The notes under the pieces were generated by a model that was given only the letters and a program-made list of their open reading frames with translations, did no database searches and was not told the DNA's origin. A stretch of DNA of 64,000 nt from Chloroflexota bacterium. Lineage in GTDB: Bacteria > Chloroflexota > Dormibacteria > Dormibacterales > Dormibacteraceae. The stretch covers positions 20,236-84,235 of the forward strand of contig VBFH01000033.1 in NCBI GenBank assembly GCA_005883575.1. Direction: 5' to 3'. Position 1 is the first letter of the stretch. Every line of letters starts with the position of its first letter. Both the position numbers and the translations under genes were made by a program. This document shows, in pieces, positions 1-13,613 of the stretch.

Positions 1-108
1 ATCGACAAGTCCGAAGAGTCTGGATGGGTATATGCCGGGCTCGGTGCAAGTGATTACTCGCCAGTTGACGTCCAGCTCAACATCGCGGGTTGGTGGAGCT
101 GTTCGTAG
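1..108 (+). CDS. 3' end of an unidentified gene (partial)
   Basis: Frame 1 is open from the window edge to a TAG at 106-108, giving 35 residues that end in WWSCS. The stretch is acidic and then aromatic, which looks more like a real protein end than random translation. The start lies outside the window. I do not recognise the family, and too little is visible to assign a function. Confidence 0.35.
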   Translation: MDKSEESGWVYAGLGASDYSPVDVQLNIAGWWSCS

Positions 109-243
109 TTCAAGGCCATTTTGGTCCGAAAGCTGACCGGTTAGCCTCGGGGCACTGTGTCAAGGCTCGTCATTGGAGTGGAATTGGGCCTATGACAAAC
201 CGCCAAAGCTGGCAGTCGAAATACTGCGAAGGTCACCTGAGAA

Positions 244-1419
244 TTGCGACGCCTCCATCTCGCGCGACTCGGTAAGGCCGCAGCTGTCGCCGCTGGCCTG
301 GTTGCTGTTCCGCTGATGCTGGAGGCACGGCTGACGCGGCATGAGCAACCGATCCGCGACTCCTGGCAGCGATCACCGATCGCTCGACGCGGCCGGACGC
401 TGCTCGGGTTCAGCTTTCGTCCGCGCCAGATCGAAGCCTTCGGCCTCGGGGGGCCACCGACACTCCAGGCGCTACTAGCCTATCCATTCGACCTGGTTCG
501 GCTTGCGGCCTACTGGAACCACATCGAAGTGCGAACGGGCGTCTTCGACACGAGTGAGCTTGATTGGCAACTCGAAGCCGCCGAAAGAGCCGGCAAGAGG
601 GTCATCTTTTCTGTCGGAGCCATCAAGAATTTCGGTTATCCCGAGTTCTTCGTGCCCAACCATAGGCTCGAACGGCCGTTACCTGAGGGTTCCCTGATCA
701 CGACGTTCACGCATGCGGATCTGCTGGCCGGAGCAATCGGGTTCATCGGGCACATCGTCAATAGGTACCGCGATCGCACCTCCATCGTCGCATGGCAGTT
801 GGAGCACGAAGCAGTCGATCCACTCGGAGTAGAGCATTCGTGGCGCCTCGGCGTTGACTTCGTCCAACGCGAGTTGGAGGCGCTCAGGAGTGCCGATACG
901 TCCCGACCAGTGATGATGAACGGCTTTCTGCCCACCTCGTCGGTGGTCAGGATCTCGCAGTGGTGGCGCACGCGCGATCAGGGTGATTCACTTGCGGTCG
1001 CCTCGCGACTGGCCGATATCGTCGGCATCGATTACTACCCTCGTCACGCTTTGCTTGCGCTGGGCTCAAGGACGCTCTACTTGAACGGCGCCGCCCTCCC
1101 TTGGCAGAAGGCGCTGACCGAAACAACCCTCAAAGGCGTATGGGGGCACGGCAAACGAGTGATGGTGGCAGAGGGTCAGGCAGAGCCGTGGGAGGCGATG
1201 ACCTTGCCCCCCAACCCAGCACTCCGGCAGATGTTCAGCTGCCGCCCAGAGGACCTCATCGGGAACTACAACATCACGATGAAATGGGCGTCTCTGAACC
1301 GACCGATCTTTGCGTATCTGTTTTGGGGAGCTGAGTACTGGATCCTTCGAGACCGGTCGGGCGACCCAACCTACCTGCGAGCAATGGCGCGAATACTGGA
1401 CGAGGCGGAGGCTCAATGA
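244..1419 (+). CDS. Secreted or membrane-anchored glycoside hydrolase-like TIM-barrel protein
   Basis: A 391-residue protein starting at TTG 244; an ATG at 316 (residue 25) is the alternative. The first ~27 residues form a basic then hydrophobic segment that could be a signal anchor. The remainder resembles clan GH-A glycosidases (GH5/GH42-like): a region containing RLAAYWNHIE, then WQLEHEA near residue 185 at the usual acid/base glutamate site (the normal Asn before Glu is His here), and VAEGQAEPWE near residue 310 as a candidate nucleophile strand. Its stop overlaps the next start by 4 nt (ATGA), so it is co-translated with the acetamidase. The substrate is unknown, and the glycosidase call rests on motif resemblance only. 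Confidence 0.55.
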   Translation: MRRLHLARLGKAAAVAAGLVAVPLMLEARLTRHEQPIRDSWQRSPIARRGRTLLGFSFRPRQIEAFGLGGPPTLQALLAYPFDLVRLAAYWNHIEVRTGVFDTSELDWQLEAAERAGKRVIFSVGAIKNFGYPEFFVPNHRLERPLPEGSLITTFTHADLLAGAIGFIGHIVNRYRDRTSIVAWQLEHEAVDPLGVEHSWRLGVDFVQRELEALRSADTSRPVMMNGFLPTSSVVRISQWWRTRDQGDSLAVASRLADIVGIDYYPRHALLALGSRTLYLNGAALPWQKALTETTLKGVWGHGKRVMVAEGQAEPWEAMTLPPNPALRQMFSCRPEDLIGNYNITMKWASLNRPIFAYLFWGAEYWILRDRSGDPTYLRAMARILDEAEAQ

Positions 1420-2351
1420 CCACGCACTACATGTCACCGACACGAGCCACACTTCATGGCCACTTCTCGGCCGCGCTGGCACCGGCGCTCGAGGTCGATC
1501 CCGGCGATACGATCCGCGCCCGAACTCTGAGCGCCTACTGGGACGATGCCGGCTTCGAGCGCCAACACCCTTTGGATGAAGGCCATGCCCTGCTCGGGCC
1601 CGTATTTGTCCGCGGGGCCAAGGCAGGCGATGCGCTTGCAATCGACATCGTGAAGGTGCGGCCCGCGCGTTCGGGCAGAACAGCGGCGGGCGACTTCCCA
1701 AGCCTCGTCAACGACCGCCTCGGGCTGACCGGTCGCGGCCATCAACGAATCGACTGGGAGATCGACCCAGAGACCATGGTCGCCCGGGCGCTGGGCTTCG
1801 AGGTCCCGGTGCAACCGTTTCTGGGTGTGATCGGCATGCCACCCGCTGACACTGGTATTCACTCGACAAATCCGCCCCGGCCAACCGGCGGAAACATTGA
1901 CTGCCGCGAGCTGGTGGCCGGCAGCACGCTCGTGCTCCCGGTCGCGGTCACGGGCGGCTTGCTGAGCTTCGGCGACGGCCACGCCGCCCAGGGCGACGGC
2001 GAGGTGGGCGGCACCGCCATCGAGTGCGCCACGGATGAAGCGGAGCTCCGCGTTGGCCTCATCGAGGCCGCAAACCTGAAGACACCCGAAGCTCACACGC
2101 CGCTCGGATTCATGACCTTCGGCTTCTCGCCGGATCTGAACGAGGCGTTGATGATCGCGCTAGAGGCGATGGTTGAACGTTTGCAGTTTGATTTGGAGCT
2201 GGATCGGGTCAAGGCCACCGCGCTCGCCAGCGTGAGCATCGATCTGCGCGTGACCCAGGTTGCGAACGAAACACTCGGTGTTCACGCACTGCTGCCGGCT
2301 GGGCGGCTCAGGCGCGGAGGTCAGGTTGTGTCCATCAGGAAGCGTTTGTGA
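1416..2351 (+). CDS. Acetamidase/formamidase family protein
   Basis: A 311-residue protein with the layout of the FmdA_AmdA family, which hydrolyses short amides to ammonia and a carboxylate. Family-typical segments are GVIGMPPADTG, then PRPTGGNIDCREL, and GDGHAAQGDGEVGGTA, which carries the conserved metal-site Asp/His region. It starts at an ATG overlapping the previous stop. Its 3' end overlaps the convergent DUF2877 gene by 17 nt (2335-2351). Lying at the end of a nitrogen-scavenging operon suggests a role in releasing ammonia from amides, but that is inference. A second paralogue lies at 35961-36902. Confidence 0.85.
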   Translation: MTTHYMSPTRATLHGHFSAALAPALEVDPGDTIRARTLSAYWDDAGFERQHPLDEGHALLGPVFVRGAKAGDALAIDIVKVRPARSGRTAAGDFPSLVNDRLGLTGRGHQRIDWEIDPETMVARALGFEVPVQPFLGVIGMPPADTGIHSTNPPRPTGGNIDCRELVAGSTLVLPVAVTGGLLSFGDGHAAQGDGEVGGTAIECATDEAELRVGLIEAANLKTPEAHTPLGFMTFGFSPDLNEALMIALEAMVERLQFDLELDRVKATALASVSIDLRVTQVANETLGVHALLPAGRLRRGGQVVSIRKRL

Positions 2352-3033
2352 TCGAGCCGATTAGCCAGAATTCAGGCTCGGTAGGGCGCCACGTCGAGCA
2401 GCTCTCGGCGTCGGTTGGGCATCCTTCCGGCTCTGACGCTGCCAGCTGAAGGCCCAGCCTCAAGCATCGCCCGGAGCTGTGGCCGAACCGATCCAGCGCA
2501 TCCGCATCTCCGCGCTCGAGGTAGGCGTGAGCGGGCTCCGCCAGCTCGCCGCGCGCGGCGTGTTCGAGCAGCGTCGCCGAAAGCCGTGTAGTGAGAGGTC
2601 CCGCAACACCGGCGATCGCCATCGCCTCGTCTCGCAAACCGTGGAAGAGCGTCAGCCCTGCGGCGTAGCCGGCCAGGATGTCGTCCCCCGCCGGCGTCAG
2701 ACCCGGGCCGCGTCCGGCCAGCGATTCGGGTTTGAGGCGCGGGTGGGGGTGACCTCTCGGCACATGCCGGACCCTCGGCACGGGATTCCATTCCGGACCT
2801 GCTTCAATCACCGAGTCATCGATCCGCAGCGTGCCCGTGCCCAGCGATGCCCGGCAGCCTCGCGGAGCGCGGACGGAGGTCTCGACACCGTTCGGCATGC
2901 GCGGCGCCCTCGGCACGGTGACGGCGAGGACGAAGCGGCCGAAGTCGATGTAACCCTGCCCGACTCCGACGCCAACCACAGCCTGGCCGAAGAACCACGG
3001 AAGGATCGAAGCGCTGACCGAGACCGCCCTCAC
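2335..3033 (-). CDS. DUF2877 protein, AllH/YlbF-like component of an oxamate carbamoyltransferase-type system
   Basis: About 232 residues from a GTG at 3033 that overlaps the upstream stop as GTGA; an open frame extends further upstream but would overlap the previous gene. The diagnostic DUF2877 segment GRGPGLTPAGDDILAGYA lies in the middle. In E. coli the equivalent protein works with FdrA and a DUF1116 protein to transfer a carbamoyl group between oxamate and phosphate. All three are present in this operon, and this is the last gene. Its 3' end runs 17 nt into the convergent acetamidase gene, so the two transcripts must overlap. Confidence 0.8.
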   Translation of the reverse strand: MRAVSVSASILPWFFGQAVVGVGVGQGYIDFGRFVLAVTVPRAPRMPNGVETSVRAPRGCRASLGTGTLRIDDSVIEAGPEWNPVPRVRHVPRGHPHPRLKPESLAGRGPGLTPAGDDILAGYAAGLTLFHGLRDEAMAIAGVAGPLTTRLSATLLEHAARGELAEPAHAYLERGDADALDRFGHSSGRCLRLGLQLAASEPEGCPTDAESCSTWRPTEPEFWLIGSITNAS

Positions 3034-3422
3034 GCCTGGGCCGCGTGCAACGAATCCATGTACGTGCGCCAATCCCCGAACTCCGAGATGTCGCGATGCC
3101 GGGCCTCGGCCAGCTCGCGCGGGTAGAGGATCCCATCGACGACGCGTCCGTCCTCGAGCGAGACCGGTCCGCGGTACAGGCGCGGCGGTTCGCCGGCCTC
3201 CACCCGAGCCCAAACCCCCGGCGGCATCCGATAGAGCTCCCCCGCCACCGTCACGCCGCCCGACTCGACCTCGAACATGCCCGGGTGCACGTCCGCGATC
3301 GAATACAGCCGATAACGGGGCGCGGTGCGGAACTCCCCGAGGAATTCCGCACCGTCCAGGTTCGCGTGCAGCTTCTGCCCGCGCATCAGCGTCCCGTTCA
3401 CGAACAGGACGATCGATTCCAC
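3030..3422 (-). CDS. Gamma-glutamylcyclotransferase-like protein related to the allophanate hydrolase C-terminal domain
   Basis: 130 residues from GTG 3422, chosen because it lies 8 nt after the permease stop and has GAGG just upstream. It opens with the LFVNGTLMRGQKLHANL strand-loop, followed by FRTAPRYRLYSI, then GELYRMP, and ends in DISEFGDWRTYMDSL. This matches the small beta-barrel domain fused to the C-terminus of allophanate hydrolases, here standing alone. In that family the domain helps process N-carboxyurea-type intermediates. A stand-alone copy between a permease and DUF2877 suggests a helper in ureide breakdown, but the actual reaction is not known to me. Confidence 0.7.
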   Translation of the reverse strand: MESIVLFVNGTLMRGQKLHANLDGAEFLGEFRTAPRYRLYSIADVHPGMFEVESGGVTVAGELYRMPPGVWARVEAGEPPRLYRGPVSLEDGRVVDGILYPRELAEARHRDISEFGDWRTYMDSLHAAQA

Positions 3423-3430
3423 GAAACGCC

Positions 3431-5161
3431 TCAGCTCAGCGCCGGCGCCGGCTCCGGCTCTGGCTTGGCGACCATCTTCGGCGCCTCGATCACGGCCGCC
3501 GGCTCCTCCAGCTGGTGCGGCGCGGGCTTGACCTTCCACACGTAAACGAAGGCCAGACAGATCGCGCCGCTGATGATGTACGCGAGGGCGACGTCCCACG
3601 TCTGCGAGAAGTCCCACGTGGTGCCGTTGTAGGCGAGCGACGGCGCGTTGATGAAGCCGAACAATGCGATCACGGCCCCGGCAAAGGAGTAGATGGCGGC
3701 CTTCATGAACTCGCGGTCGATGATGAAGACCGCGATCGCGCCCAGGATCAGGCCGGCCAGCACGGCGCCGCCGCCGACCCGTACGAGGCCGTCGTAGATG
3801 ACGCCGTTTCCGACCAGGGCGCTCAAGGCTACGTGCGACGTGTCGCCCGCCGCGACCGTCTTCTGGACGCCGAAGACGCCGACCGTGGCCAGCGTGTTAT
3901 CGATCAAGCCCTGCGCCCAGTTGGCGATGTTGGGGACAAGGGCCAGCACCACGCCCGCCGCGTGCGCACGCGGGGTGGCCTGAAACGCCTGGGCGCCGAT
4001 GACCAGGCCGATGAAGAGGAGGATGGGGACCAGCGCCTGGATCGGGAAGATCGCCAGCAGCAATCCCACCAGGCCGCCAAAGCAGATCAAGGCGACGAAC
4101 GCGCCCGTTGCCAGCGAGTAGCCGATGCGACCGCCGGCCGCTTTCCAGCCAGGGTGGCCGATGTAGACGGCGGGTGGGAACGGCGAGCCGAGCGCCGAGC
4201 CGACGACGGCGCCGATGCCGTCCGCAGCCAGAATGTAACGCAGGTTGTACGAGTCGCCCGCGGCCGCTGCGCTCTCCACGTTGTTCATACCCTCGGTGAA
4301 GTTGTAGACGCCGAGCGGGATGGCAGTGACCAGCAGCGGGCCGATGTCGCTCAGCCCGTTGAAGAGATGGCCGAGGTTGCCGAAGTTGGGCGCGTGCAGG
4401 CCGATGGGCCCAGAGGCGTCACTGAACGAGCCCATCCAGAGCTGCGTCTGCGTCGTCCAGCCCGCGGCCAGCGCGAGCCAGCCGACCACCGTCGCCAGCA
4501 CCACCGCGGCGAGCCCGGCGGGCACGTTGCCCGGCAGGCGGACGTTGGCGGTCCAGCCGACGAGGATGATCACGAAAGCGGCGAAGGCCACGTACGGAAC
4601 CTCGAACATCTGCGCCGCGGGGCGCATGGAGATGAAGGTGATCGAGATCCCGGCCAGCGTGCCCAGCATCGCCGCCCGCGGCGTGTACTTGCGGATCGAT
4701 GGTCCGATGAAGGCACCGAGGAGGACGATGACGCCGATGATGAACGCCCACGCCAGGCCGCTCTCCCACGCCAGGACGGCGGCCGCGCCAGCGCCGCCGG
4801 CCTCGTCCTTGTGCTTCAAGAAGGTCGGCAGCATGATCACGAAGGTCACCAGGAACATGTGCGGCACGCTCGGTCCGTACGGCATGGCCGCGACCGAGGT
4901 GCGGTTCTCCTTCCTGGACAGCCGATACGCGAGGTAGGCGTACCAGAAGTTGCCGATGATGAGCGCGATGCCCAGGGCGGGCAGGATGCTGCCGTAGACG
5001 TTGTCGGGCGCGATCTTGACCACGCCCAGACACAAGCCGCTCAAGACGATGACGTTCAGCATCACGTTGGTGCCGAGCCCGAAGAACGCGTTCAAGTCGC
5101 CGCGGACCCACAGCGGGATCTTCAGCGGCGAGATCTGGCGGCCCTCGACTGCAGTGCTCAT
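3431..5161 (-). CDS. NCS2-family purine/uracil/ureide permease
   Basis: A 576-residue polytopic membrane protein starting at ATG 5161, overlapping the upstream stop as ATGA. It has roughly 12-14 hydrophobic segments. The signature YNFTEGMNNVESAAAAGD sits in the middle, like the transmembrane 8 region of AzgA/NCS2 nucleobase carriers. The N-terminal MPYGPSVPHMF motif and the hydrophilic C-tail rich in Pro, Glu and Ala are also visible. NCS2 proteins normally import nucleobases with protons or sodium. Placement inside the carbamoyltransferase operon suggests it imports the purine, pyrimidine or ureide that feeds the pathway. It is longer than most NCS2 proteins (about 430-500). Confidence 0.85.
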   Translation of the reverse strand: MSTAVEGRQISPLKIPLWVRGDLNAFFGLGTNVMLNVIVLSGLCLGVVKIAPDNVYGSILPALGIALIIGNFWYAYLAYRLSRKENRTSVAAMPYGPSVPHMFLVTFVIMLPTFLKHKDEAGGAGAAAVLAWESGLAWAFIIGVIVLLGAFIGPSIRKYTPRAAMLGTLAGISITFISMRPAAQMFEVPYVAFAAFVIILVGWTANVRLPGNVPAGLAAVVLATVVGWLALAAGWTTQTQLWMGSFSDASGPIGLHAPNFGNLGHLFNGLSDIGPLLVTAIPLGVYNFTEGMNNVESAAAAGDSYNLRYILAADGIGAVVGSALGSPFPPAVYIGHPGWKAAGGRIGYSLATGAFVALICFGGLVGLLLAIFPIQALVPILLFIGLVIGAQAFQATPRAHAAGVVLALVPNIANWAQGLIDNTLATVGVFGVQKTVAAGDTSHVALSALVGNGVIYDGLVRVGGGAVLAGLILGAIAVFIIDREFMKAAIYSFAGAVIALFGFINAPSLAYNGTTWDFSQTWDVALAYIISGAICLAFVYVWKVKPAPHQLEEPAAVIEAPKMVAKPEPEPAPALS

Positions 5162-5859
5162 ACCCTTCCTCCTACAGACTGGCCCGCCTCGAGCGCGACG
5201 AGCAGCTTTTCCGAGCTGGACACCCAGCCGAAGATGCCTCCCTGCGCCTTGATCATGCGAAGCGCGTACTCCTGGAACTCCGGGAAGTAAGATCCGACGC
5301 AGTCTTCGAGCACCAGGCACTCGTAGCCGCGGTCGTTGGCCTCCCGCACCGTGGTGTTGACGCAAACCTCGGTTGTGACTCCGGTTACGACCAGGCTCTC
5401 GATGCCGCGGTTGTGGAGCATGAAGTCGAGGTCGGTGGCGAAGAACGCGCCCTTGCCCGGCTTGTCGACCACCGTCTCATCGCCGATGGGCTTCAGCTCG
5501 TCGATGATGTCGTGCCCGTGGGAGCCGCGCACCAGGATGCGGCCCATGGGACCGACGTCACCGATGCCACAGCTCAATCGCCCGCGCGCGATCTTCGAAG
5601 GCGGGCAGTCGGACAGGTCCGGGCGGTGTCCTTCTCGCGTATGGATGACGGTGTAGCCGCCCTCGCGCATCACGCCGAGCACGCGCTGGAGCGGCGCGAT
5701 GACGCGCCGCAGGTTGCTGACGTCGTTGCCCAGCTGCTCGCCGAAGCCGCCAGGTTCGACGAAGTCGCGCTGCATGTCGATCAACAGCAGCGCGGTGCGC
5801 TTGGGGTCGAGCTCGAACTCGTACGGCTCGGCTTCCACCGTCAGCTTGTGTTCCGTCAT
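5158..5859 (-). CDS. Isochorismatase-fold cysteine amidohydrolase (ureidoacrylate/biuret-type)
   Basis: 233 residues with the complete Asp-Lys-Cys triad of cysteine hydrolases in this fold: LLLIDMQRDF (Asp, near residue 28), VDKPGKGAFF (Lys, near 133) and GVTTEVCVNTT (Cys, near 166). Family members cleave amide bonds in biuret, ureidoacrylate, N-carbamoylsarcosine and similar molecules. ATG 5859 overlaps the carbamate kinase stop (ATGA), and its own stop overlaps the permease start. In this operon it probably splits off ammonia or carbamate from a ureide intermediate. Which substrate it uses cannot be read from the sequence. Confidence 0.82.
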   Translation of the reverse strand: MTEHKLTVEAEPYEFELDPKRTALLLIDMQRDFVEPGGFGEQLGNDVSNLRRVIAPLQRVLGVMREGGYTVIHTREGHRPDLSDCPPSKIARGRLSCGIGDVGPMGRILVRGSHGHDIIDELKPIGDETVVDKPGKGAFFATDLDFMLHNRGIESLVVTGVTTEVCVNTTVREANDRGYECLVLEDCVGSYFPEFQEYALRMIKAQGGIFGWVSSSEKLLVALEAGQSVGGRV

Positions 5860-6842
5860 TGCCTTCTTTCTCCTTTCGCCGCCTGGACGGTCCCGACCAG
5901 CCGGGTCCCGGTCTCGCCTCGCAAGGCTGCCGCCAGCCGATCTGTCGACGTGATGAGCACCTCACCGCCTCCCGCCCGCAGGTAGTCGAGCGCCGCCCGG
6001 ATCTTCGGTCCCATGCTGCCGGGCGGGAACTGACCCTCGGCCAGGTGGCGCTCCGCCTCCTCGAGCGTGATCCGGTCCAGGAATCGCTGATCCGGCTTGC
6101 CGAAGTTCACCGCCACCTGCGGCACCCCGGTCGTGATCACGAAAAGGTCGGCCCCGATTCCTGCGGCCAGCAGCGACGAGGCGAAATCCTTGTCGATCAC
6201 TGCCTCGATGCCGTGGAAGCCGCCTCCCGGCTCCTCCACGACCGGGATCCCGCCGCCGCCTGCGGCGATGACGATGAACCCGCCTCGGACCAGCGCGGCC
6301 ACGGCGTCCAGCTCGAGGACTCGTATCGGTCGTGGAGAGGCGACCACCCGCCGCCAGCCGCGGCCCGAGTCCTCCACCATCGCCCAGCCCTCGCGTGCTC
6401 GCAGCTCCATAGCCTCGGCAGCTGGGAACCACGAGCCGATGGGCTTGGTCGGATTCGACAACGCAGGGTCCGTCTCGCTAACCACGGTATGGGTGATGAC
6501 TGCGACCACCGTTCGATCGACCCCGGTCGCCCGGAGCTCGTTGGTCAGCGCGCCGCTGACGATGTAGCCGATGCCACCCTGCGAGTCCGCCACCGCGACG
6601 TCGAGTCCGATGCGCGGGATGTTGGTGTCGATGCGGGCGACGATGTCGGAGCGGCGAAGGATGAAGCCGGCCTGGGGCCCGTTGCCGTGCGTCACCACGA
6701 CTGTCCATCCGTCGGCCACCATGGCGGCGATCTCGTGCGAGATCCGGGACGCGGCTATGAACTGATCGGCGATGCTGCCGTGCTGGTTGTCCGGCACCAG
6801 GGCGTTGCCACCGATCGCGACCACGGCGGTGCGGTTGCTCAC
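5856..6842 (-). CDS. arcC: Carbamate kinase
   Basis: 328 residues from GTG 6842, which overlaps the DUF1116 stop as GTGA. Amino acid kinase motifs are clear: AIGGNAL at the N-terminus, VVVTHGNGPQAG, AAGGGGIPV, VIDKDFASSLLA and the C-terminal GSMGPKIRAAL. The enzyme makes ATP from carbamoyl phosphate and ADP, releasing ammonia and carbon dioxide. The neighbouring carbamoyltransferase genes would supply the carbamoyl phosphate, so this is the energy-yielding last step, comparable to the catabolic carbamate kinase of E. coli allantoin fermentation. I see no arginine deiminase genes here, so a role in arginine breakdown is less likely. Confidence 0.93.
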   Translation of the reverse strand: MSNRTAVVAIGGNALVPDNQHGSIADQFIAASRISHEIAAMVADGWTVVVTHGNGPQAGFILRRSDIVARIDTNIPRIGLDVAVADSQGGIGYIVSGALTNELRATGVDRTVVAVITHTVVSETDPALSNPTKPIGSWFPAAEAMELRAREGWAMVEDSGRGWRRVVASPRPIRVLELDAVAALVRGGFIVIAAGGGGIPVVEEPGGGFHGIEAVIDKDFASSLLAAGIGADLFVITTGVPQVAVNFGKPDQRFLDRITLEEAERHLAEGQFPPGSMGPKIRAALDYLRAGGGEVLITSTDRLAAALRGETGTRLVGTVQAAKGERRQ

Positions 6843-8245
6843 AGCCCGGCTTCGACGGCGGCCAGCGCCTCGACGAAGCACGCGATCGGCGCGCGAGCGA
6901 TGCCGGCGCCGATCTGACCGACACCTGGACGGCGGTGCGCGATCCCCGTGTCGATAACCGGCGCCGAGCCTGTGTCCAGCACCTTGCGCAGGTCGATCCC
7001 GGTCGGGCTTCCGAGGAATCTCAACGGCGGCAGCTGGAAGTCGCGGCTGCGGGCGAGCGTTATGTCCGCCATCTCGACCGTGTAAGCCATCGCGTCCGCC
7101 GGCGTGCCGCCGACGAATCCGACGACCGCCGGCGCCGCCGCCATCGCGAAGCCGCCGATGCCGGCCGTCTCGGTGATCGCGCTGTCGCCGAGGTCAGGGT
7201 TAGCGTCCTCTGGACCGTAGCCCGGGAAGTACAGGCCGTCCGGAACCGGCGCCGGCGTGACGAACCAGCGCTCTCCGCAGCCGCTCACGCGAATGCCGAA
7301 GTCGACCCCGTTGCGCGCCATCGTGGTCACGAGCGTGGAGTGGGGGACGCCCTCGCCCGCCGCCGTCATCAGCTTGCAGGCCGCCATGTTGGCGTTGAGC
7401 GCGAAATGGTTGTTGTCGCGCATGAACTCCAGGACGCGTACGCCCGCCTCGCCCTGCCGCGCCAGGGCGGGCGCCAGCTGCCTGCTCCACAGCGAGGTCG
7501 AGCCGACGTTGCGGTTGTGGCACTCGTCGCCCATTTGCAGCGCCTGCGCGATGTTCGACTTCATGTTGATCGGCTCCTTCAGCGAGCGGAGGGCGGCCCC
7601 CAGCGTGGGCCCGACCTCCGCGACCATCCACCGCAGCTTGGTCAGCACCTCATCGTCGTTGGCGCCGAAGCGCAGCGCCTTGCCGATTCCCTCGTTGAGG
7701 TTTGAGTACGCGCGCCTTCCCGTCGAAGGGTCCTCGAGCACGTAGACCGGCATCGAGGGCGAGATGAGCCCCGCCATCGGGCCGACCGCGTCGTGGTGAT
7801 GGCACGGCGCGAACTTCACGTCACCCGACGCCGCGATCTCCTCCGCGCGTACCAGGTCCGGCGCCCAGCCCTCGAGCACGATCGCGCCCGCGACCGCGCC
7901 GCGCATCGGGCCACACATATGCTCCCACTCGATCGGGGGCCCGGCATGGAGCAGCAGCCGGCCTTCGGCCAGGGCGGGTATCGCCTCGCGCGCGGCGACG
8001 ACGTCGAGCAGCACGGCCTGCGCCGCCAGCACCAGCTCGATCGCGGTCGCGTTGGCCTTCTCGATCCGCTCGTCGTTCATGAGCCGCGCGAGCCGCATCG
8101 CCGCGTCCGCGTCGCCCAGCGCGGGCGGACGCCAGTCGAGCGTGATCACCGAAACCCCGGCGGCGGCGATCGGCTCCGCGAAGCTGGCGAGCCCGACGTT
8201 GACCGCCTTCAGCTCACCGGCCATCAGCTCGTCGAGCCCGCTCAC
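6839..8245 (-). CDS. DUF1116 protein, AllG/YlbE-like component of an oxamate carbamoyltransferase-type system
   Basis: 468 residues from GTG 8245 (GTGA overlap with the FdrA stop). Typical segments are VNVGLASFAEPI with TLDWRPPA close behind at the N-terminus, CGPMRGAVAGAIVLEGWA, FAPCHHHDAVGPMAG, and HNRNVGSTSLWSRQLAP. The family is known to be encoded next to FdrA and DUF2877 proteins, and in E. coli the trio forms oxamic transcarbamylase. The conserved His-rich FAPCHHHDAVGPM segment looks like a substrate or metal site, which is inference. It is the second gene of the operon, directly before carbamate kinase. Confidence 0.88.
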   Translation of the reverse strand: MSGLDELMAGELKAVNVGLASFAEPIAAAGVSVITLDWRPPALGDADAAMRLARLMNDERIEKANATAIELVLAAQAVLLDVVAAREAIPALAEGRLLLHAGPPIEWEHMCGPMRGAVAGAIVLEGWAPDLVRAEEIAASGDVKFAPCHHHDAVGPMAGLISPSMPVYVLEDPSTGRRAYSNLNEGIGKALRFGANDDEVLTKLRWMVAEVGPTLGAALRSLKEPINMKSNIAQALQMGDECHNRNVGSTSLWSRQLAPALARQGEAGVRVLEFMRDNNHFALNANMAACKLMTAAGEGVPHSTLVTTMARNGVDFGIRVSGCGERWFVTPAPVPDGLYFPGYGPEDANPDLGDSAITETAGIGGFAMAAAPAVVGFVGGTPADAMAYTVEMADITLARSRDFQLPPLRFLGSPTGIDLRKVLDTGSAPVIDTGIAHRRPGVGQIGAGIARAPIACFVEALAAVEAGL

Positions 8246-9723
8246 ACCCGCGCCCCCACCAGGTCGGCCGCCAGCTGGACCGCCGCCGTGCTGCTCGGCG
8301 CCAGGACCGCGCCCGCCTCGGAGAGCTCGCGGTGCTGCGCGGCCAGGCTCTGACGGTCGCCGGGCGTGCCGCACACGAAAGCGATGACCAGCGGCCCGCC
8401 CTCCGCCTCCCTGATCGCGGGCGCCAGCGCCCCGGCCGGGTCGTCGGCCGAGCCCGTGCCCAGCACGACGTCGAGAAGGACGACCGCGGTGTCCGGTGCT
8501 TGGATCGCCGCGCGCACGAACTCGACCCTCAGGGTCGGGTCGATCATCGGGTGGGGACGGCCGACGGTGAACTGGTCCGCGCCGAGGTCGAGCACGAGGT
8601 GGCCGGGTGGGAACGCGATCGGATGGCCGCTCACCCAATGGCCGATCGACGTCTTGACGTCGCCCAGCAGCAGGCTCGCCTCGTAGGCGAAGGTGCCGCC
8701 GGAGAAGATCGCCCGGATAGCGGTCCGGCCGCCGGCGACCCTTGTCGCGACCGGCGGTGCGGGCGCGGCGTGCATGGTGCGACCGAGTGACAGGCCGCAT
8801 GCGATCCCGGCGGCCTCCGCCAGCGTGGTGGCGGGGTGCACGTTCGGCGCGGTCGCCTCGAGCTTCGAGCCGATGAAGTTGACAACGACCTGCTTTTCCG
8901 AGCGGGCTGCCCGCTCCATCACCTTCTGGGCCACGCTCGGCGCCGGCGGCTTGGACACGAGCACGACGACCTTGGTGGCGGGGTCGGCGTCCAGCGCCTC
9001 GAACGCGAACAGCATCGAGCGGGCCCCGACCTTCTCCGACAGGTCGTGGCTGCCCACGCCGATCAGCTGGCTCACGCCTGCGCCCCCGGCGTCGACGAGG
9101 CAGGAGATCTCCTGGCTGCCCGTGCCGGACGCCCCGATCAGACCGATGTCGCCGCGCCGGACCGCGTTCGCGAAGCCGAGCGGGACACCGTTGATGATCG
9201 CGGTGCCGCAGTCCGGGCCCATGACAAGCAGCCCGCGGTGCGAGGCCTCCTCTTTGAGCATCACCTCGTCCTCGACCGGCACGTTGTCGCTGAACAGGAA
9301 AACGTGCATGCCGAGCTTCAGCGCCTTCAGCGCCTCGGCCGCGGCGTACGCGCCAGGCGTCGAGATCAGGGCCAGGTTGGCGCCCGCCACCTGGGCCAGG
9401 GCGCGGGGCCGGCGCGCGCCATGCTCCCCTGCGGACGTGGGCGCCGGCAAGGCGGTCAGCCCGGTCTCCGCATCCGCCAGCAGGCCGTCGACAAGGTTGT
9501 CCTCGGAGCGGACCGCGATCACCAGATCGTTCGGCCCAGCAGAGCTGCCGGCATCGTCCAGGAGCCCGGCCTCGCGCAGGATGTCCTTGTTGGCCGGCGT
9601 GCCCATCATCAGTGAGGCATCGTCGACCTCAGGCCGGGCCGTCAGCCCGGCGGCGATTCGCATCAGCACAACCGAGTCGAAGTACGCGTTGCGCTTGACC
9701 CGCGTTTTCGCGACCAGCGACAT
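8242..9723 (-). CDS. fdrA: FdrA family protein, AllF-like acyl-CoA-synthetase-fold subunit of a carbamoyltransferase
   Basis: 493 residues from ATG 9723; a TTG three codons upstream (9732) is an alternative. It resembles the succinyl-CoA synthetase alpha fold: NAYFDSVVLMRIA with MGTPANKDIL close behind, then VMGPDCGTAIINGVPLGF, and the glycine loop IGLIGASGTGSQEIS. The second half carries LVLDLGADQFTVGRPHPMID, also FdrA-typical. With DUF1116 and DUF2877 it should transfer a carbamoyl group from a ureide such as oxalurate to phosphate. It is the first gene of the operon and is divergent from the PucR regulator across about 100 nt. Confidence 0.9.
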   Translation of the reverse strand: MSLVAKTRVKRNAYFDSVVLMRIAAGLTARPEVDDASLMMGTPANKDILREAGLLDDAGSSAGPNDLVIAVRSEDNLVDGLLADAETGLTALPAPTSAGEHGARRPRALAQVAGANLALISTPGAYAAAEALKALKLGMHVFLFSDNVPVEDEVMLKEEASHRGLLVMGPDCGTAIINGVPLGFANAVRRGDIGLIGASGTGSQEISCLVDAGGAGVSQLIGVGSHDLSEKVGARSMLFAFEALDADPATKVVVLVSKPPAPSVAQKVMERAARSEKQVVVNFIGSKLEATAPNVHPATTLAEAAGIACGLSLGRTMHAAPAPPVATRVAGGRTAIRAIFSGGTFAYEASLLLGDVKTSIGHWVSGHPIAFPPGHLVLDLGADQFTVGRPHPMIDPTLRVEFVRAAIQAPDTAVVLLDVVLGTGSADDPAGALAPAIREAEGGPLVIAFVCGTPGDRQSLAAQHRELSEAGAVLAPSSTAAVQLAADLVGARV

Positions 9724-9821
9724 CAGGCGCAACTCTAGGCCTGGCCGCCTGCTCCGTCACTGGCGCCTCCCGCCCGAAATTCCGCCCTTGGATTGGCAGG
9801 ATTCGCCATATAGTTCGGTGC
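9724..9821. promoter_or_regulatory. Divergent control region between the fdrA operon and pucR-like gene
   Basis: This 98-nt gap must hold the promoters for both the catabolic operon (leftward) and the regulator (rightward). For the regulator, TATAGT at 9809-9814 lies 7 nt before the GTG start, the spacing expected of a -10 element on a leaderless message. No Shine-Dalgarno sequence is visible. A weak -35 (TTGGAT, 9788-9793) is only 15 nt upstream of it. I could not pick a convincing promoter for the leftward operon. PucR-type regulators usually bind such gaps. Confidence 0.4.
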
Positions 9822-11378
9822 GTGAGCGTGGCGCGGGTCGAGCCCGCGACGCACCGCGTCGGGATCACCGTCCGGGAGGCGCTCGTCCTGCCGTCCCTGG
9901 CGCGCGGCCGTCTGGCCGCCGGCGCCCGCGGCCTGGAGCGCCGGATCACCTCGGTGAACATGATGGAGGTCCCCGACATCGGGGCCTACCTGCGCGCCGG
10001 CGAGCTGCTGGTGACGACGGCCTATCCGCTGCGCGACGACGCCCGCGCTGTCAACGAGCTGGTCCAGATGCTCGCGTTGAAGGGCCTCGCGGGCCTCGCG
10101 CTGAAGCCCGGCCGCTACATCGAGGCCCTGCCGGGGGCCATGGTCGCGGGCGCCGAGCGCCTCGGCTTCCCGCTCATCGAGCTGCCCGACGACGCGTCGT
10201 TCAACGACATCCTGGCCGACGTGCTCGGCTCGATCCTGAACCGGCACGCGCTGCAGCTCGAGCGGGCCCGGGCCATCCACGACCGGCTGAACGCGGTCGC
10301 GCTCGCGGGCGGATCGCTCCACGAGCTGATCGACGCGCTCTCGTCGCTGGTCGGCCAGGCGAGTGCGGTGTTCGACACCCACGGCGAGGTGGTGGCGTCG
10401 GTCGGAGTGCAGCCTGTTTCGCGGTCTCCGCGCACCTCGCGTCCCATCCAGGCCGGCCCGCAGCGCCACGGCGAGATGGTGCTTTGGACGGACGAAGCGG
10501 AGCTCGGGTTGGACGGCGTCATAGCGCTGGAGCACGCAGCGACCATCGCCGCGCTGGAGATGGCGCAGGCGCGCCTGCTGCTGTCACGCGAGCAGCGCCA
10601 CCGCGTGCTGCTGCTGGAGGAGCTCGTCTCGGGTCGCCCGCAAAACTCGGGCGAGATCGCGGAGCGTGTGGCGGCGTATGGATGGAATCTGGCCACGCCG
10701 CGGGCGGCGCTCGTCGCAATCGTGCGCAACGACGCCGGCGACTCGCCTGAGGTCGGCGGGCGTCCGCTGGAGGAGCAGCTCCTCACCCAAATGCGCTCGG
10801 TGCTGGGCCGTGAGGCGATCGGTTGGGGGCTGCGCTCAGGGATCGCGGTCCTGGCGGAGGCCGACGGATCCGCCGTGACGACCGTGAAGAGCGCCGCCGA
10901 TCGCCTGGCCGCAGCCATCCGGCGCGAGCATCCGGCGCTGCACGTCGCGGTTGGGATCGGACGCGTTTGCGCCGGCGCCGAAGATCTTCATCACAGCTAC
11001 CGCGAGGCGCAGGAGGCCGCGAGCCTCGGTCATGAGCTGAGGGGATCGGACTTCGTCATCAGTCGCGAGGAGCTGGGTGTCTACCGGCTGCTCCAGTCGC
11101 TGGTTGCCGACGAGACCCTGCGTCGCTTCTGCGAAGAGACGCTGAGGCCCCTGCTCGACTACGACACACGGCACCGCGGCTCCCTGGTGCGGACCCTGGA
11201 GACCTACCTGAGGCTCGACCGCAACAAGGCGGCGGCCGCGCGCGAGCTGTTCGTGCACTACAACACCCTTCGCTACCGGCTGCAGCAGATCTCGACTCTC
11301 ACCGGCGGGCTCGACCGTCACCCGACGAGCCGGCTTGCTCTGGAGGTCGCGGTCCACGGGCTGAAGCTTCTGCGCTGA
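9822..11378 (+). CDS. PucR family transcriptional regulator
   Basis: 518 residues starting at GTG 9822. The N-terminal ~120 residues (TVREALVLPSLARGRLAAG through MMEVPDIGAYLRAGELLVT) match the PucR purine-catabolism sensor domain. A middle GGDEF-like linker follows, and the C-terminus has the PucR helix-turn-helix: TYLRLDRNKAAAARELFVH then NTLRYRLQQISTLTG. Such proteins sense purine-breakdown products (allantoin in B. subtilis) and switch on nitrogen-scavenging genes. Being divergent from the fdrA operon makes it the obvious local regulator. The message may be leaderless. Confidence 0.9.
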   Translation: MSVARVEPATHRVGITVREALVLPSLARGRLAAGARGLERRITSVNMMEVPDIGAYLRAGELLVTTAYPLRDDARAVNELVQMLALKGLAGLALKPGRYIEALPGAMVAGAERLGFPLIELPDDASFNDILADVLGSILNRHALQLERARAIHDRLNAVALAGGSLHELIDALSSLVGQASAVFDTHGEVVASVGVQPVSRSPRTSRPIQAGPQRHGEMVLWTDEAELGLDGVIALEHAATIAALEMAQARLLLSREQRHRVLLLEELVSGRPQNSGEIAERVAAYGWNLATPRAALVAIVRNDAGDSPEVGGRPLEEQLLTQMRSVLGREAIGWGLRSGIAVLAEADGSAVTTVKSAADRLAAAIRREHPALHVAVGIGRVCAGAEDLHHSYREAQEAASLGHELRGSDFVISREELGVYRLLQSLVADETLRRFCEETLRPLLDYDTRHRGSLVRTLETYLRLDRNKAAAARELFVHYNTLRYRLQQISTLTGGLDRHPTSRLALEVAVHGLKLLR

Positions 11379-11438
11379 GCGCCCGATGGCTGGGCGGCAT
11401 CGAGTGAGCCGGCGAGTCTTGCGCCTCAGCCGATCCTC

Positions 11439-12815
11439 GTGCACAGTACTTTCGGCGACATGATCGGCGAGCGTGCTGACTTCCGAAGCCTGGCCGGTGA
11501 GATCGCCGGCGAAATCATTCTGCCCGGTGACGCCGGCTACGAGGCGGGACGGCGGGTCTGGAACGGCATGATCGACAAGCGCCCACTGGGCATAGTCCGA
11601 TGCTCCGGGTCCGGCGATGTCCTCGCGGCCATCGCCTTCGCGAGAGCCTACGGAATCGTCGTGGCGGTTCGGGGCGGAAGTCACAACATCGCGGGCAACG
11701 CGACGTGTGACGACGGCCTGGTGATCGACCTCTCGCCTATGAAAAGCATTGATGTTGATCAGACCAGGCGGAGGGTGCGAGTCGATGGCGGGGTCGTATG
11801 GGGTGAGCTCGACGCGGCGACGCAGAGGTTCGGACTTGCCACCAATGGCGGGCTGATGCCGTCCACCGGCATCGCCGGCTTCACCCTCGGCGGCGGCCTG
11901 GGTCACCTGATGCGAAGTTACGGCCTGGCTTGCGACAGCCTGGTCTCGGCTGAGGTGGTGACTGCCGACGGTCGCAAGCTCATGGCGAGCGCCGAACAGA
12001 ATGACGATCTCTACTGGGCGATCCGCGGCGGCGGCGGCAACTTTGGCGTGGTGACCTCCTTTGAGTTCCGCCTCCACGAGGTCGGCCCAATCATGCTTGG
12101 AGGACGCCTGGGTTATCCGCTGGCTGACGGACCTGAAGTCTTGCGGTTCTATCGCGAGTTCATCGCCGGTGCACCCGACCAATTGATTGTCTATGCGGGC
12201 TTCTCGACAAGCCCCGAGGGCGAGCCGCGGCTCGGGATGCGCGCGGTTTTCAACGGCCCCATCGCCGAAGGCGAATCACTGCTCAAGCCGCTCCGCCAGT
12301 TCGGCACCCCGGTCCAGGATGACATCAAGCCACGTACGTACGTGGACATTCAGAAGATCGTCGAGCCGATGTTTCCGCCCGGTCGGCTCAACTACTGGAA
12401 GGCCAACTTTGTCGACATCTTGAGTGACGAGCTGATCGACCTTCTGGTCGCGGCTTACGGCCGAGTTCCCTCGCGGTACTCGAACATTGCAGTGGAACCG
12501 ATGGGTGGCGTCGTCGCGCGCGTACCTGACACTGACACTGCCTTCCATCACCGCGCACCCGCTTACAGCCTGCTGATCCTTGGAGGATGGCTTGGCGCAA
12601 ACGAGAGCGAGGCCAACATCGCCTGGGTTCGCGAGCTCTGGGATGCGACCCGCCCTCTCTCATCGAGCGCTGTGTATGTCAACTACCTCGGGGCGGAAGG
12701 CGATGCCAGGGTCAAGGACGCTTATGGTCCGAACCACGCGCGGCTCTCCGAGATCAAGCGCAAATACGACCCTGACAACTTCTTTCGACTCAATCAGAAC
12801 GTCGAGCCGGCATAA
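11439..12815 (+). CDS. FAD-linked oxidase with BBE-type C-terminus
   Basis: 458 residues from GTG 11439 (an ATG at 11460 is possible). The N-terminal FAD-binding PCMH-type domain shows RGGSHNIAG, with His82 placed to bind flavin covalently, and TGIAGFTLGGGLGHL. The C-terminal BBE segment YGPNHARLSEIKRKYDPDN is complete. The usual second flavin-linking Cys before the GGG(x)G loop is missing (Ser/Thr in MPSTGIAG), so only one covalent flavin bond is expected. Relatives oxidise sugars or alkaloid-like alcohols and amines. It is followed after 14 nt by a cyclase-family gene and probably shares its message. Confidence 0.82.
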   Translation: MHSTFGDMIGERADFRSLAGEIAGEIILPGDAGYEAGRRVWNGMIDKRPLGIVRCSGSGDVLAAIAFARAYGIVVAVRGGSHNIAGNATCDDGLVIDLSPMKSIDVDQTRRRVRVDGGVVWGELDAATQRFGLATNGGLMPSTGIAGFTLGGGLGHLMRSYGLACDSLVSAEVVTADGRKLMASAEQNDDLYWAIRGGGGNFGVVTSFEFRLHEVGPIMLGGRLGYPLADGPEVLRFYREFIAGAPDQLIVYAGFSTSPEGEPRLGMRAVFNGPIAEGESLLKPLRQFGTPVQDDIKPRTYVDIQKIVEPMFPPGRLNYWKANFVDILSDELIDLLVAAYGRVPSRYSNIAVEPMGGVVARVPDTDTAFHHRAPAYSLLILGGWLGANESEANIAWVRELWDATRPLSSSAVYVNYLGAEGDARVKDAYGPNHARLSEIKRKYDPDNFFRLNQNVEPA

Positions 12816-12829
12816 GCCGTGGTCTCAGA

Positions 12830-13606
12830 ATGGATTCAGTGCTAAAGGATCTCATCGCAGCAATCGCGGACTCGAGGATCGAGGTGATCGATCTGACAGC
12901 ACCGCTCTCTGAAAAGACGCCGATCATTCAGCTTCCGCCACCGTTCGCAAACACAAGGCGCTTCGAGCTGACGCAGATCAGTCACTACGACGAACGTGGA
13001 CCCGCCTGGTACTGGAACGACATCGCCACGGGCGAACATGTGGGCACACACCTCGATGCACCGATCCATTGGATCACTGGCCGCGAGCAAAGCGATGTCT
13101 CGCAAATTCCAGCTCAGCAGCTGATCGCACCAGCAGTGGTCATCGACAAAAGCCGCGAGTGCGCGAACAACCCTGACTACCTGCTGGAGGTCTCTGACAT
13201 TGAGGCGTGGCAGCGCGAGCACGGTCCCCTGCCGGATGGTGGCTGGCTTCTCTACCGGACTGGATGGGATGCTCGAGCTGGCGACCAACACAGATTTCTG
13301 AACGCAGACGATTCCGGACCCCACACACCGGGCATTTCCGTCGCGTGTGCCCGATGGCTGGCCGAGGTGGCGCGGGTCATCGGGGTAGGCGTCGAAACCG
13401 TTGGCACCGATGCTGGCAAGGCGCACAGCTTCGATCCCGCATTCCCTTGTCACGCATACCTGCTCGGTGCGGGCAAGTATGGCCTGACCCAGCTAGCCAA
13501 CCTGGCTCGAGTGCCGCCGACGGGCGCGATCCTCATCGCCGGTCCTCTGCCCATCGTGCACGGTTCCGGAAGCCCGGCCCGTGTGCTGGCGCTGATCGAG
13601 CGGTAA
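12830..13606 (+). CDS. Cyclase family metal-dependent hydrolase (kynurenine formamidase-like)
   Basis: 258 residues with the family hallmark HxGTHxDxPxH at residues 70-80 (HVGTHLDAPIH), supplying metal-binding His70, His74, Asp76 and His80. A later VGVETVGTDAGKAHS region followed by the H of PCHAYLL is also conserved. Members hydrolyse N-formylkynurenine, isatin or related amides and lactams. The sequence does not say which. It sits between a BBE flavoprotein and a ThDP enzyme with gaps of 14 and 7 nt, so the three likely act in one pathway of unknown substrate. Confidence 0.85.
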   Translation: MDSVLKDLIAAIADSRIEVIDLTAPLSEKTPIIQLPPPFANTRRFELTQISHYDERGPAWYWNDIATGEHVGTHLDAPIHWITGREQSDVSQIPAQQLIAPAVVIDKSRECANNPDYLLEVSDIEAWQREHGPLPDGGWLLYRTGWDARAGDQHRFLNADDSGPHTPGISVACARWLAEVARVIGVGVETVGTDAGKAHSFDPAFPCHAYLLGAGKYGLTQLANLARVPPTGAILIAGPLPIVHGSGSPARVLALIER

Positions 13607-13613
13607 GCAGACA

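What the first reader, a model, noticed from the sequence alone, without database searches (positions are those of the whole stretch)
2335..9723. Complete compact ureide-to-ATP operon built around an FdrA/DUF1116/DUF2877 carbamoyltransferase
Seven genes on the minus strand hold all three parts of an oxamate carbamoyltransferase-type system, carbamate kinase, an isochorismatase-fold amidohydrolase, an NCS2 permease and an allophanate-hydrolase-C-like protein, joined mostly by 4-nt overlaps. No ring-opening amidohydrolase or allantoinase is present, so either the imported substrate is already a linear ureide or an unlisted member does the ring opening. Seen: gene order, motifs and overlaps. Known: FdrA/DUF1116/DUF2877 form oxamic transcarbamylase in E. 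coli. Inferred: the pathway and its energy-saving role.
Basis: partly seen in the sequence, partly recalled or inferred. Interest (0 to 1): 0.75.

Follow-up and report, generated by a model that had tools for sequence, protein, structure and literature searches.

The report
Predicted triuret-to-ATP operon with AllFGH transferase
A seven-gene bacterial operon, six of whose genes have counterparts side by side in over a quarter of complete E. coli genomes, pairs a likely triuret-cutting enzyme with a likely carbamoyltransferase and a kinase, and would harvest ATP from a urea-like compound that the known triuret pathway only hydrolyses.

Summary
The operon is real and exact (2335-9723, minus strand): AllF, AllG, carbamate kinase, isochorismatase-like hydrolase, permease, standalone allophanate-hydrolase-C protein (AHC), AllH; five of six junctions overlap by 4 nt. 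The hydrolase matches triuret hydrolase TrtA, not biuret hydrolase BiuH, at all six discriminating positions and falls with solved TrtA in a 100/100 clade. TrtA makes carboxybiuret, as does cyanuric acid hydrolase AtzD; elsewhere AllFG sits beside either. Among 46 TrtA loci from evenly drawn genomes of two phyla, 12 carry AllFG and 14 BiuH, never both; own-type AHC is in 12 of 12 AllFG loci and 2 of 34 others. This assembly shows no second such hydrolase, no AH_C-bearing AtzF and no urease. I infer that AllFGH phosphorolyses carboxybiuret (or biuret) to carbamoyl phosphate, giving ATP where the known route only hydrolyses. A six-gene counterpart with another permease is in 1547 of 5426 complete E. 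coli genomes. Substrate, step order and AHC's role are untested.

The parts
8242..9723 (-). allF (FdrA), first gene, putative carbamoyltransferase subunit, ATG at 9723
   Evidence: NF004760 481 bits over cut-off; Ligase_CoA and CoA_binding
6839..8245 (-). allG (DUF1116), carbamoyltransferase subunit, GTG start, 4-nt overlap with allF
   Evidence: PF06545 E 1.8e-87; junction GTGA
5856..6842 (-). carbamate kinase, GTG start, 4-nt overlap with allG
   Evidence: NF009007 381 bits, cut-off 266; junction GTGA
5158..5859 (-). isochorismatase-like hydrolase of triuret hydrolase (TrtA) type, 4-nt overlap with kinase gene
   Evidence: best PDB match TrtA 6XIX E 3.2e-81; 6 of 6 TrtA positions and D24/K129/C162/Q202; 100/100 clade with TrtA
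3431..5161 (-). permease of NCS2/SLC23-like fold, predicted importer, no Pfam family, 4-nt overlap with hydrolase gene
   Evidence: no family; AlphaFold model; Foldseek hits SVCT1, SLC26, AZG1, UraA, UapA
3030..3422 (-). standalone AH_C protein (AHC), 130 aa, GTG start; predicted decarboxylase for an N-carboxy ureide
   Evidence: PF21986 E 4.3e-32; closest solved relative 5C5Z, identical over 129 aa to the AHC of the E. coli CFT073 operon
2335..3033 (-). allH (DUF2877), carbamoyltransferase subunit, GTG start, 4-nt overlap with AHC gene
   Evidence: PF11392 E 9.8e-15; only AllH match in the genome; junction GTGA
9822..11378 (+). divergent PucR-family regulator, likely controls the operon
   Evidence: PF07905, PF13556, PF17853; a PucR gene is also divergent in 5 of the 6 other AllFG-bearing TrtA loci of the Chloroflexota sample

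Best explanation
This operon encodes a triuret-hydrolase-type enzyme together with AllF, AllG, AllH and carbamate kinase, and is predicted to import triuret and turn it into ammonia, CO2, urea and one ATP by phosphorolysis instead of pure hydrolysis. Inferred steps: (1) the permease imports triuret; (2) the TrtA-type hydrolase cuts a terminal amide to carboxybiuret and NH3; (3) AllF-AllG-AllH, which in E. coli interconvert oxalurate with oxamate and carbamoyl phosphate, transfer the terminal carbamoyl of carboxybiuret to phosphate, giving carbamoyl phosphate and allophanate; (4) AHC decarboxylates the N-carboxy ureide (allophanate to urea, or, in the reverse order, carboxybiuret to biuret before step 3); either order gives the same net products; (5) carbamate kinase makes ATP from carbamoyl phosphate. 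Shown here: gene content, family membership, TrtA-type residues, recurrent linkage, and no match to BiuH, AH_C-bearing AtzF or urease in this 95.5% complete assembly. Everything about substrates and reactions is inference.
For: TrtA residues F35, N41, A134, E160, Y187, I205 all present (BiuH 6AZO has Y, Y, S, D, T, V), catalytic D24/K129/C162 and Q202 kept (positions from JBC 2020 PMC7948467 passages). The 51 tree rows with the E160/Y187 pair, solved TrtA included, form a 100/100 clade without BiuH. Same paper: TrtA and AtzD both yield carboxybiuret. Of 80 AllG loci, 14 have such a hydrolase and 17 AtzD (2 both); 6 of 6 AtzD tested (of 17) pass NCBI's cyanuric acid hydrolase cut-off, and that of Moorella mulderi matches a solved cyanuric acid hydrolase, 6BUM, at 740 bits. 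Seven of 16 genomes with AtzD-AllFG loci (completeness not told) have neither a BiuH-scale hit (best under 100 bits) nor any AH_C, leaving AllFGH as the candidate next step. Substitution: the same permease type and TrtA stand with BiuH and AtzH in G059; 46 TrtA loci: 12 AllFG, 14 BiuH, none both (Fisher p 0.009); own-type AHC in 12 of 12 AllFG and 2 of 34 others (p 2e-9). Own genome.
Against: No activity shown for any AllFGH-linked member. Solved TrtA lies with BiuH-paired copies on a long branch (0.66); AllFGH-linked hydrolases lie outside it, so triuret specificity is extrapolated. Own-type AHC is absent from the 17 AtzD loci (L069 has an AtzF-type one) and from the 9 loci with H160/F187 hydrolases, so its role is not explained by carboxybiuret alone. 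Two TrtA-permease-AHC loci lack AllFG nearby (L092, L097). My AllH profile found no AllH in 2 of the 12 AllFG loci (L098, L112). G700 with the operon also has BiuH and AtzF elsewhere, and G694 has a second, untyped hydrolase copy. On the AllG tree TrtA and cyclase contexts mix almost as much as TrtA and AtzD (merging saves 4 and 5 of 10 changes). Fisher values ignore relatedness, and the 46 include the window itself and three loci of one genome (G766). NCBIfam's BiuH model is its best hit there (283 bits, under the 370 cut-off), and no TrtA-named model was listed. Four of 13 Chloroflexota genomes with the hydrolase, this one included, show no urease, so urea would be excreted.
Confidence: 0.58

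Rival explanations
1. Oxalurate operon: AllFGH keep their E. coli reaction (oxalurate plus Pi to oxamate plus carbamoyl phosphate), the permease imports oxalurate, and the hydrolase is an oxamate amidohydrolase or makes oxalurate from its amide.
For: E. coli AllFGH is reported to be oxamic transcarbamylase (abstract); oxaluric acid (abstract start in listing), like triuret (passage), can arise from uric acid oxidation.
Against: Hydrolase has all six TrtA positions and lies in the TrtA clade; a standalone AH_C, a domain named for allophanate hydrolase, is in 12 of 12 such loci and has no obvious role in an oxalurate route; E. coli K-12 AllG is a distant long-branch row.
Confidence: 0.15
2. Biuret operon: the hydrolase makes allophanate from biuret, and AllFGH phosphorolyse allophanate to carbamoyl phosphate plus carbamate.
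For: Best NCBIfam hit is BiuH (E 1.9e-84); BiuH-type hydrolases do occur with AllFGH genes in L004 and L104; a Rhodococcus BiuH accepts both biuret and triuret (passage).
Against: TrtA rather than BiuH residues; score under the BiuH cut-off; separate clade from BiuH; genomes with AtzD-AllFG but no BiuH-scale hit need AllFGH to act before allophanate.
Confidence: 0.15
3. Two parallel pathways that are merely neighbours: triuret or biuret hydrolysis by the hydrolase, and separate oxalurate use by AllFGH plus kinase, as proposed for comammox and archaeal nitrifiers; or pyrimidine (Rut-like) degradation as proposed for the E. coli copy.
For: Both readings are in print (mSystems 2025 PMC12625717, passages; PLoS One 2026 PMC12928451, passages).
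Against: Here the genes interleave in one overlapping operon, and no BiuH or AH_C-bearing AtzF for the hydrolase's product was found in the genome; RutB model 123 bits, cut-off 378.
Confidence: 0.12

Closest known systems
E. coli K-12 allFGHK oxamate branch of allantoin degradation
   Same: AllF, AllG, AllH and carbamate kinase together
   Different: K-12 has allantoin genes next to it; here a TrtA-type hydrolase, AHC and another permease. No allantoinase-type hit in 1-14000; AllC, AllD and AllE were not searched for
Triuret pathway TrtA-TrtB-BiuH-AtzF (JBC 2020)
   Same: TrtA-type first enzyme
   Different: BiuH and AtzF are replaced by AllFGH, kinase and standalone AHC; carbamoyl phosphate instead of full hydrolysis (inferred)
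E. coli CFT073 4529438-4535402; the like region of strain BEN2908 is described as GR29 in PLoS One 2026
   Same: TrtA-type hydrolase, AllH, AllF, AllG, carbamate kinase, AHC
   Different: NCS1 CodB-like permease and LysR regulator; read in print as pyrimidine use
biuH and allFGHK clusters of comammox and ammonia-oxidising archaea (mSystems 2025)
   Same: isochorismatase-like hydrolase beside allFGHK
   Different: comammox also carry atzF; the authors treat the two as separate pathways; no standalone AHC in the passages seen
AtzD-AllFG loci (Moorella mulderi, Melaminivora, Clostridium asparagiforme, Eggerthellaceae and others)
   Same: AllFG, in several with kinase and AllH, beside an enzyme that makes carboxybiuret
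   Different: cyanuric acid ring opening instead of TrtA; no own-type AHC

Membership tests
Oxamate carbamoyltransferase AllFGH | All three subunits AllF, AllG, AllH by family model | tested here: met
   NF004760, PF06545, PF11392 over cut-offs
Oxamate carbamoyltransferase AllFGH | Carbamoyl transfer between oxalurate or oxamate and carbamoyl phosphate | not testable with these tools
   needs enzyme assay
Triuret hydrolase TrtA | Catalytic D24, K129, C162 plus Q202 | tested here: met
Triuret hydrolase TrtA | TrtA rather than BiuH residues at F35, N41, A134, E160, Y187, I205 | tested here: met
   6 of 6
Triuret hydrolase TrtA | Phylogenetic placement with characterised TrtA | tested here: met
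   100/100 clade of 51 with 6XIX; the solved enzyme is on a long sub-branch
Triuret hydrolase TrtA | Activity on triuret, not biuret | not testable with these tools
   needs enzyme assay
Biuret hydrolase BiuH | NCBIfam NF050097 over its curated cut-off of 370 bits | tested here: not met
   282.6 bits; a BiuH-type copy in G059 scores 423
Ureidoacrylate amidohydrolase RutB | TIGR03614 over cut-off 378 bits | tested here: not met
   122.7 bits
Allophanate hydrolase AtzF | Amidase domain plus AH_C domain | tested here: not met
   AH_C only, 130 aa; no other AH_C match in the genome
Carbamate kinase | NCBIfam carbamate kinase model over cut-off | tested here: met
   NF009007 380.9 bits, cut-off 266; arcC TIGR00746 331.5, under its 358 cut-off
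NCS2 (PF00860) permease | Pfam Xan_ur_permease match | tested here: not met
   no match
NCS2 (PF00860) permease | SLC23/UraA-type fold | tested here: met
   Foldseek prob 1.00 to SVCT1, UraA, UapA, also SLC26; TM by query 0.4-0.5

The most novel reading that the evidence does not exclude
AllFGH is not just an allantoin enzyme but a family of acylurea phosphorylases, and with carbamate kinase it forms a second, ATP-yielding trunk for carboxybiuret that serves both triuret (via TrtA plus a dedicated AHC decarboxylase) and cyanuric acid (via AtzD) across many phyla, including over a quarter of complete E. coli genomes.
Probability: 0.45. Interest if true: 0.8.

Novelty: new variant of a known kind. 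Interest (0 to 1): 0.62.

Why it matters
If true, triuret and cyanuric acid, which can come from urea fertiliser, pesticides and uric acid oxidation (passages), would have an energy-conserving fate that should also work without oxygen; a solved protein named only as a glutamyl-tRNA amidotransferase (5C5Z) and an operon in 1547 of 5426 complete E. coli genomes would get a function; and two readings in print would be replaced by one that a single enzyme assay can decide.

Tried and rejected
Rejected: plain BiuH (residues, cut-off, tree), RutB, complete AtzF. Considered and left weak: the AllG tree as a test that TrtA and AtzD contexts interchange (67 of 95 rows labelled: merging TrtA with AtzD saves 5 of 10 changes, with cyclase 4, so little discrimination). 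Urease linkage as a test of urea release is mixed: 9 of 13 hydrolase-bearing Chloroflexota genomes have a match (G330 only marginal, 23.6 bits), on the operon's contig in G229, but none in G000, G093, G353, G368; a regex for the urease active site found none in 16 operon stretches, but the G229 stretch ends before that motif. Rfam: no hit in 1-14000. Literature: in the held open-access library I found no paper linking AllFGH to triuret or cyanuric acid as its substrate source; only the mSystems paper has the genes side by side (one search showed 20 of 68 papers; two searches gave nothing on AH_C chemistry or on the CFT073 protein's function).

Rows dropped: L047's hydrolase is in two pieces (E160 and C162 not covered); it was labelled TrtA-type in the AllG tree but left out of the hydrolase tree and of the 46-locus table. 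Two rows of unclear residue type (second hydrolases of L132 and L135) were left out of the hydrolase tree. L005 (G419) was in the Pseudomonadota sample but, having been found through AllG, is not in the 46. Of 57 hydrolase places, 51 lie in fetched regions, one in L005 and five were not fetched (second copies in G829, G694, G556, G732, G645). Of 39 fetched Pseudomonadota stretches 36 held a TrtA-type hydrolase; of 13 Chloroflexota hydrolase loci, 10.
Full report
What is there. Seven genes on the minus strand, 9723 to 2335, in the order AllF, AllG, carbamate kinase, isochorismatase-like hydrolase, permease, AHC, AllH, with family models over their cut-offs for all but the permease. Start sites follow from the junctions: GTGA, GTGA, ATGA, ATGA, a short gap, GTGA. 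A PucR regulator lies divergently at 9822-11378, as a PucR does in 5 of the 6 other AllFG-bearing TrtA loci of the Chloroflexota sample. The genome belongs to Chloroflexota: its phylum sample contains a one-contig genome of 11.3 Mb whose AllG position matches that of Ktedonosporobacter rubrisoli (locus L022).

The hydrolase is TrtA-like. Its best solved relative is triuret hydrolase 6XIX (275 bits) ahead of BiuH 6AZO (251) and RutB (108). Against the residues that the TrtA paper lists as separating triuret from biuret hydrolases (passages read), it has all six TrtA letters and the catalytic residues. In a tree of 82 hydrolases the rows with E160/Y187, solved TrtA among them, form a 100/100 clade of 51, with BiuH and a third class (H160/F187) on the other side. 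Caution: solved TrtA and 12 of the BiuH-paired copies form one long sub-branch; the AllFGH-linked copies are outside it and, as far as I know, unassayed.

What AllFGH would act on. TrtA and AtzD both make carboxybiuret (passage). Among 80 AllG-bearing loci found by similarity to the window's AllG (so not a random sample), 14 have such a hydrolase, 17 an AtzD, 2 both, and 26 a cyclase-family gene, the last never with the first two. Six of six AtzD proteins tested, of 17, pass NCBI's cyanuric acid hydrolase cut-off; that of Moorella mulderi matches a solved cyanuric acid hydrolase at 740 bits. Of 16 genomes with AtzD-AllFG loci, whose completeness is not told, 12 have no BiuH/TrtA-scale hit (best 120.4 bits), 9 have no AH_C, and 7 have neither. 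In these 7 AllFGH is the only candidate next step seen, so it should accept carboxybiuret or biuret.

Natural substitution. I searched 400 Chloroflexota genomes (at least 80% complete) and 398 Pseudomonadota genomes, drawn evenly by the tool. In Chloroflexota 13 carry the hydrolase at E<=1e-50; 12 of those 13 carry AllG against 71 of 400 overall, and in 8 it is next door. In Pseudomonadota 36 of 398 carry it at E<=1e-70. Reading 46 TrtA-type loci from both, the window among them: 12 have AllFG, 14 have a BiuH-type partner, none has both (p 0.009); the own-type standalone AHC is in 12 of 12 AllFG loci and 2 of 34 others (p 2e-9); carbamate kinase is in 12 of 12 AllFG loci and AllH was detected in 10 of 12; 10 of the 14 BiuH loci have the AtzF-type AH_C. 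My AHC profile, built from five loci of the window's cluster, scores the AtzF type 65-90 bits and the own type 149-224. One Chloroflexota relative (G059) has the same permease type and TrtA with BiuH and AtzH. These p-values ignore relatedness; three of the 46 loci are from one genome (G766). The labels are spread over the trees: TrtA context on the AllG tree needs at least 5 changes on strongly supported branches, AllFG linkage on the hydrolase tree at least 4, which suggests repeated assembly or transfer of the set. At least one genome with the operon also has BiuH and AtzF elsewhere (G700), so the two routes are alternatives at locus level, not strictly at genome level.

This genome. One hydrolase of the family at E<=1e-30, one AH_C, the operon's own, one AllH, no urease alpha. 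The assembly is 95.5% complete, so absences are probable, not certain.

E. coli. The AHC of E. coli CFT073 is identical over 129 aa to solved chain 5C5Z and lies in an operon with carbamate kinase, AllG, AllF, AllH and a hydrolase carrying 6 of 6 TrtA letters, beside an NCS1 permease and a LysR regulator. That six-gene stretch, permease not included, has a match in 1547 of 5426 complete E. coli genomes (1542 over at least 80% of it), 127 of 1616 places being on plasmids; only the CFT073 hydrolase was typed. PLoS One 2026 (passages) describes such a region as likely pyrimidine use; mSystems 2025 (passages) treats allFGHK beside biuH in nitrifiers as a separate oxalurate route. I found no paper in the held library giving AllFGH triuret- or cyanuric-acid-derived substrates.

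Mechanism and limits. Net reaction proposed: triuret to 2 NH3, 2 CO2 and urea with one ATP. The order of steps 3 and 4 is a choice: I prefer carboxybiuret as AllFGH substrate because oxalurate, the known one, also carries a carboxylate, and allophanate as AHC substrate because it resembles N-carboxycarbamate, which I recall as the AH_C substrate in AtzF (recalled; no call). AHC's absence from AtzD and H160/F187 loci is unexplained. The permease is NCS2-like by fold only.

Noticed in passing
L006, L011, L012, L030, L032, L033, L036, L042: AtzD (cyanuric acid hydrolase family) with AllFG, in several also carbamate kinase and an unclassified permease; looks like a phosphorolytic cyanuric acid route, also in Melaminivora, a genus whose name recalls melamine.
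   Followed up: partly
L011, L016, L037, L038, L053, L056, L057, L062, L067: Third hydrolase class with H160/F187 beside AllFG, in seven of nine flanked by two permeases of the window's type and in none with AHC; substrate unknown.
   Followed up: partly
L115, L117, L119, L120, L122, L123, L124, L126, L127, L129, L133: TrtA-type hydrolase plus the window's permease type with no BiuH, AllFG or AH_C within the stretch; the downstream route is unclear.
   Followed up: partly
L114, L121, L138 (G766): One genome with two TrtA-AllHFG-kinase-AHC operons (the hydrolase of L138 lacks Q202) and a third hydrolase copy with AllH only.
   Followed up: no
L097 (G206): Kinase, TrtA-type hydrolase, permease and AHC in order but no AllFGH next to them; that genome's one AllG hit lies on another contig beside a cyclase-family gene (L108).
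   Followed up: partly
window 1416-2351: Acetamidase/formamidase-family gene on the plus strand, convergent with allH and overlapping its end by 17 bases; could act on a product amide.
   Followed up: no
window 11439-13606: A predicted FAD-linked oxidase (by sequence look only) and a PF04199 cyclase-family gene downstream of pucR; cyclase genes mark a different AllFGH context in 26 of 80 loci.
   Followed up: no
E. coli, hits: 127 of 1616 places of the operon lie on plasmids, and one listed chromosomal copy has an IS2-family transposase under the match.
   Followed up: no
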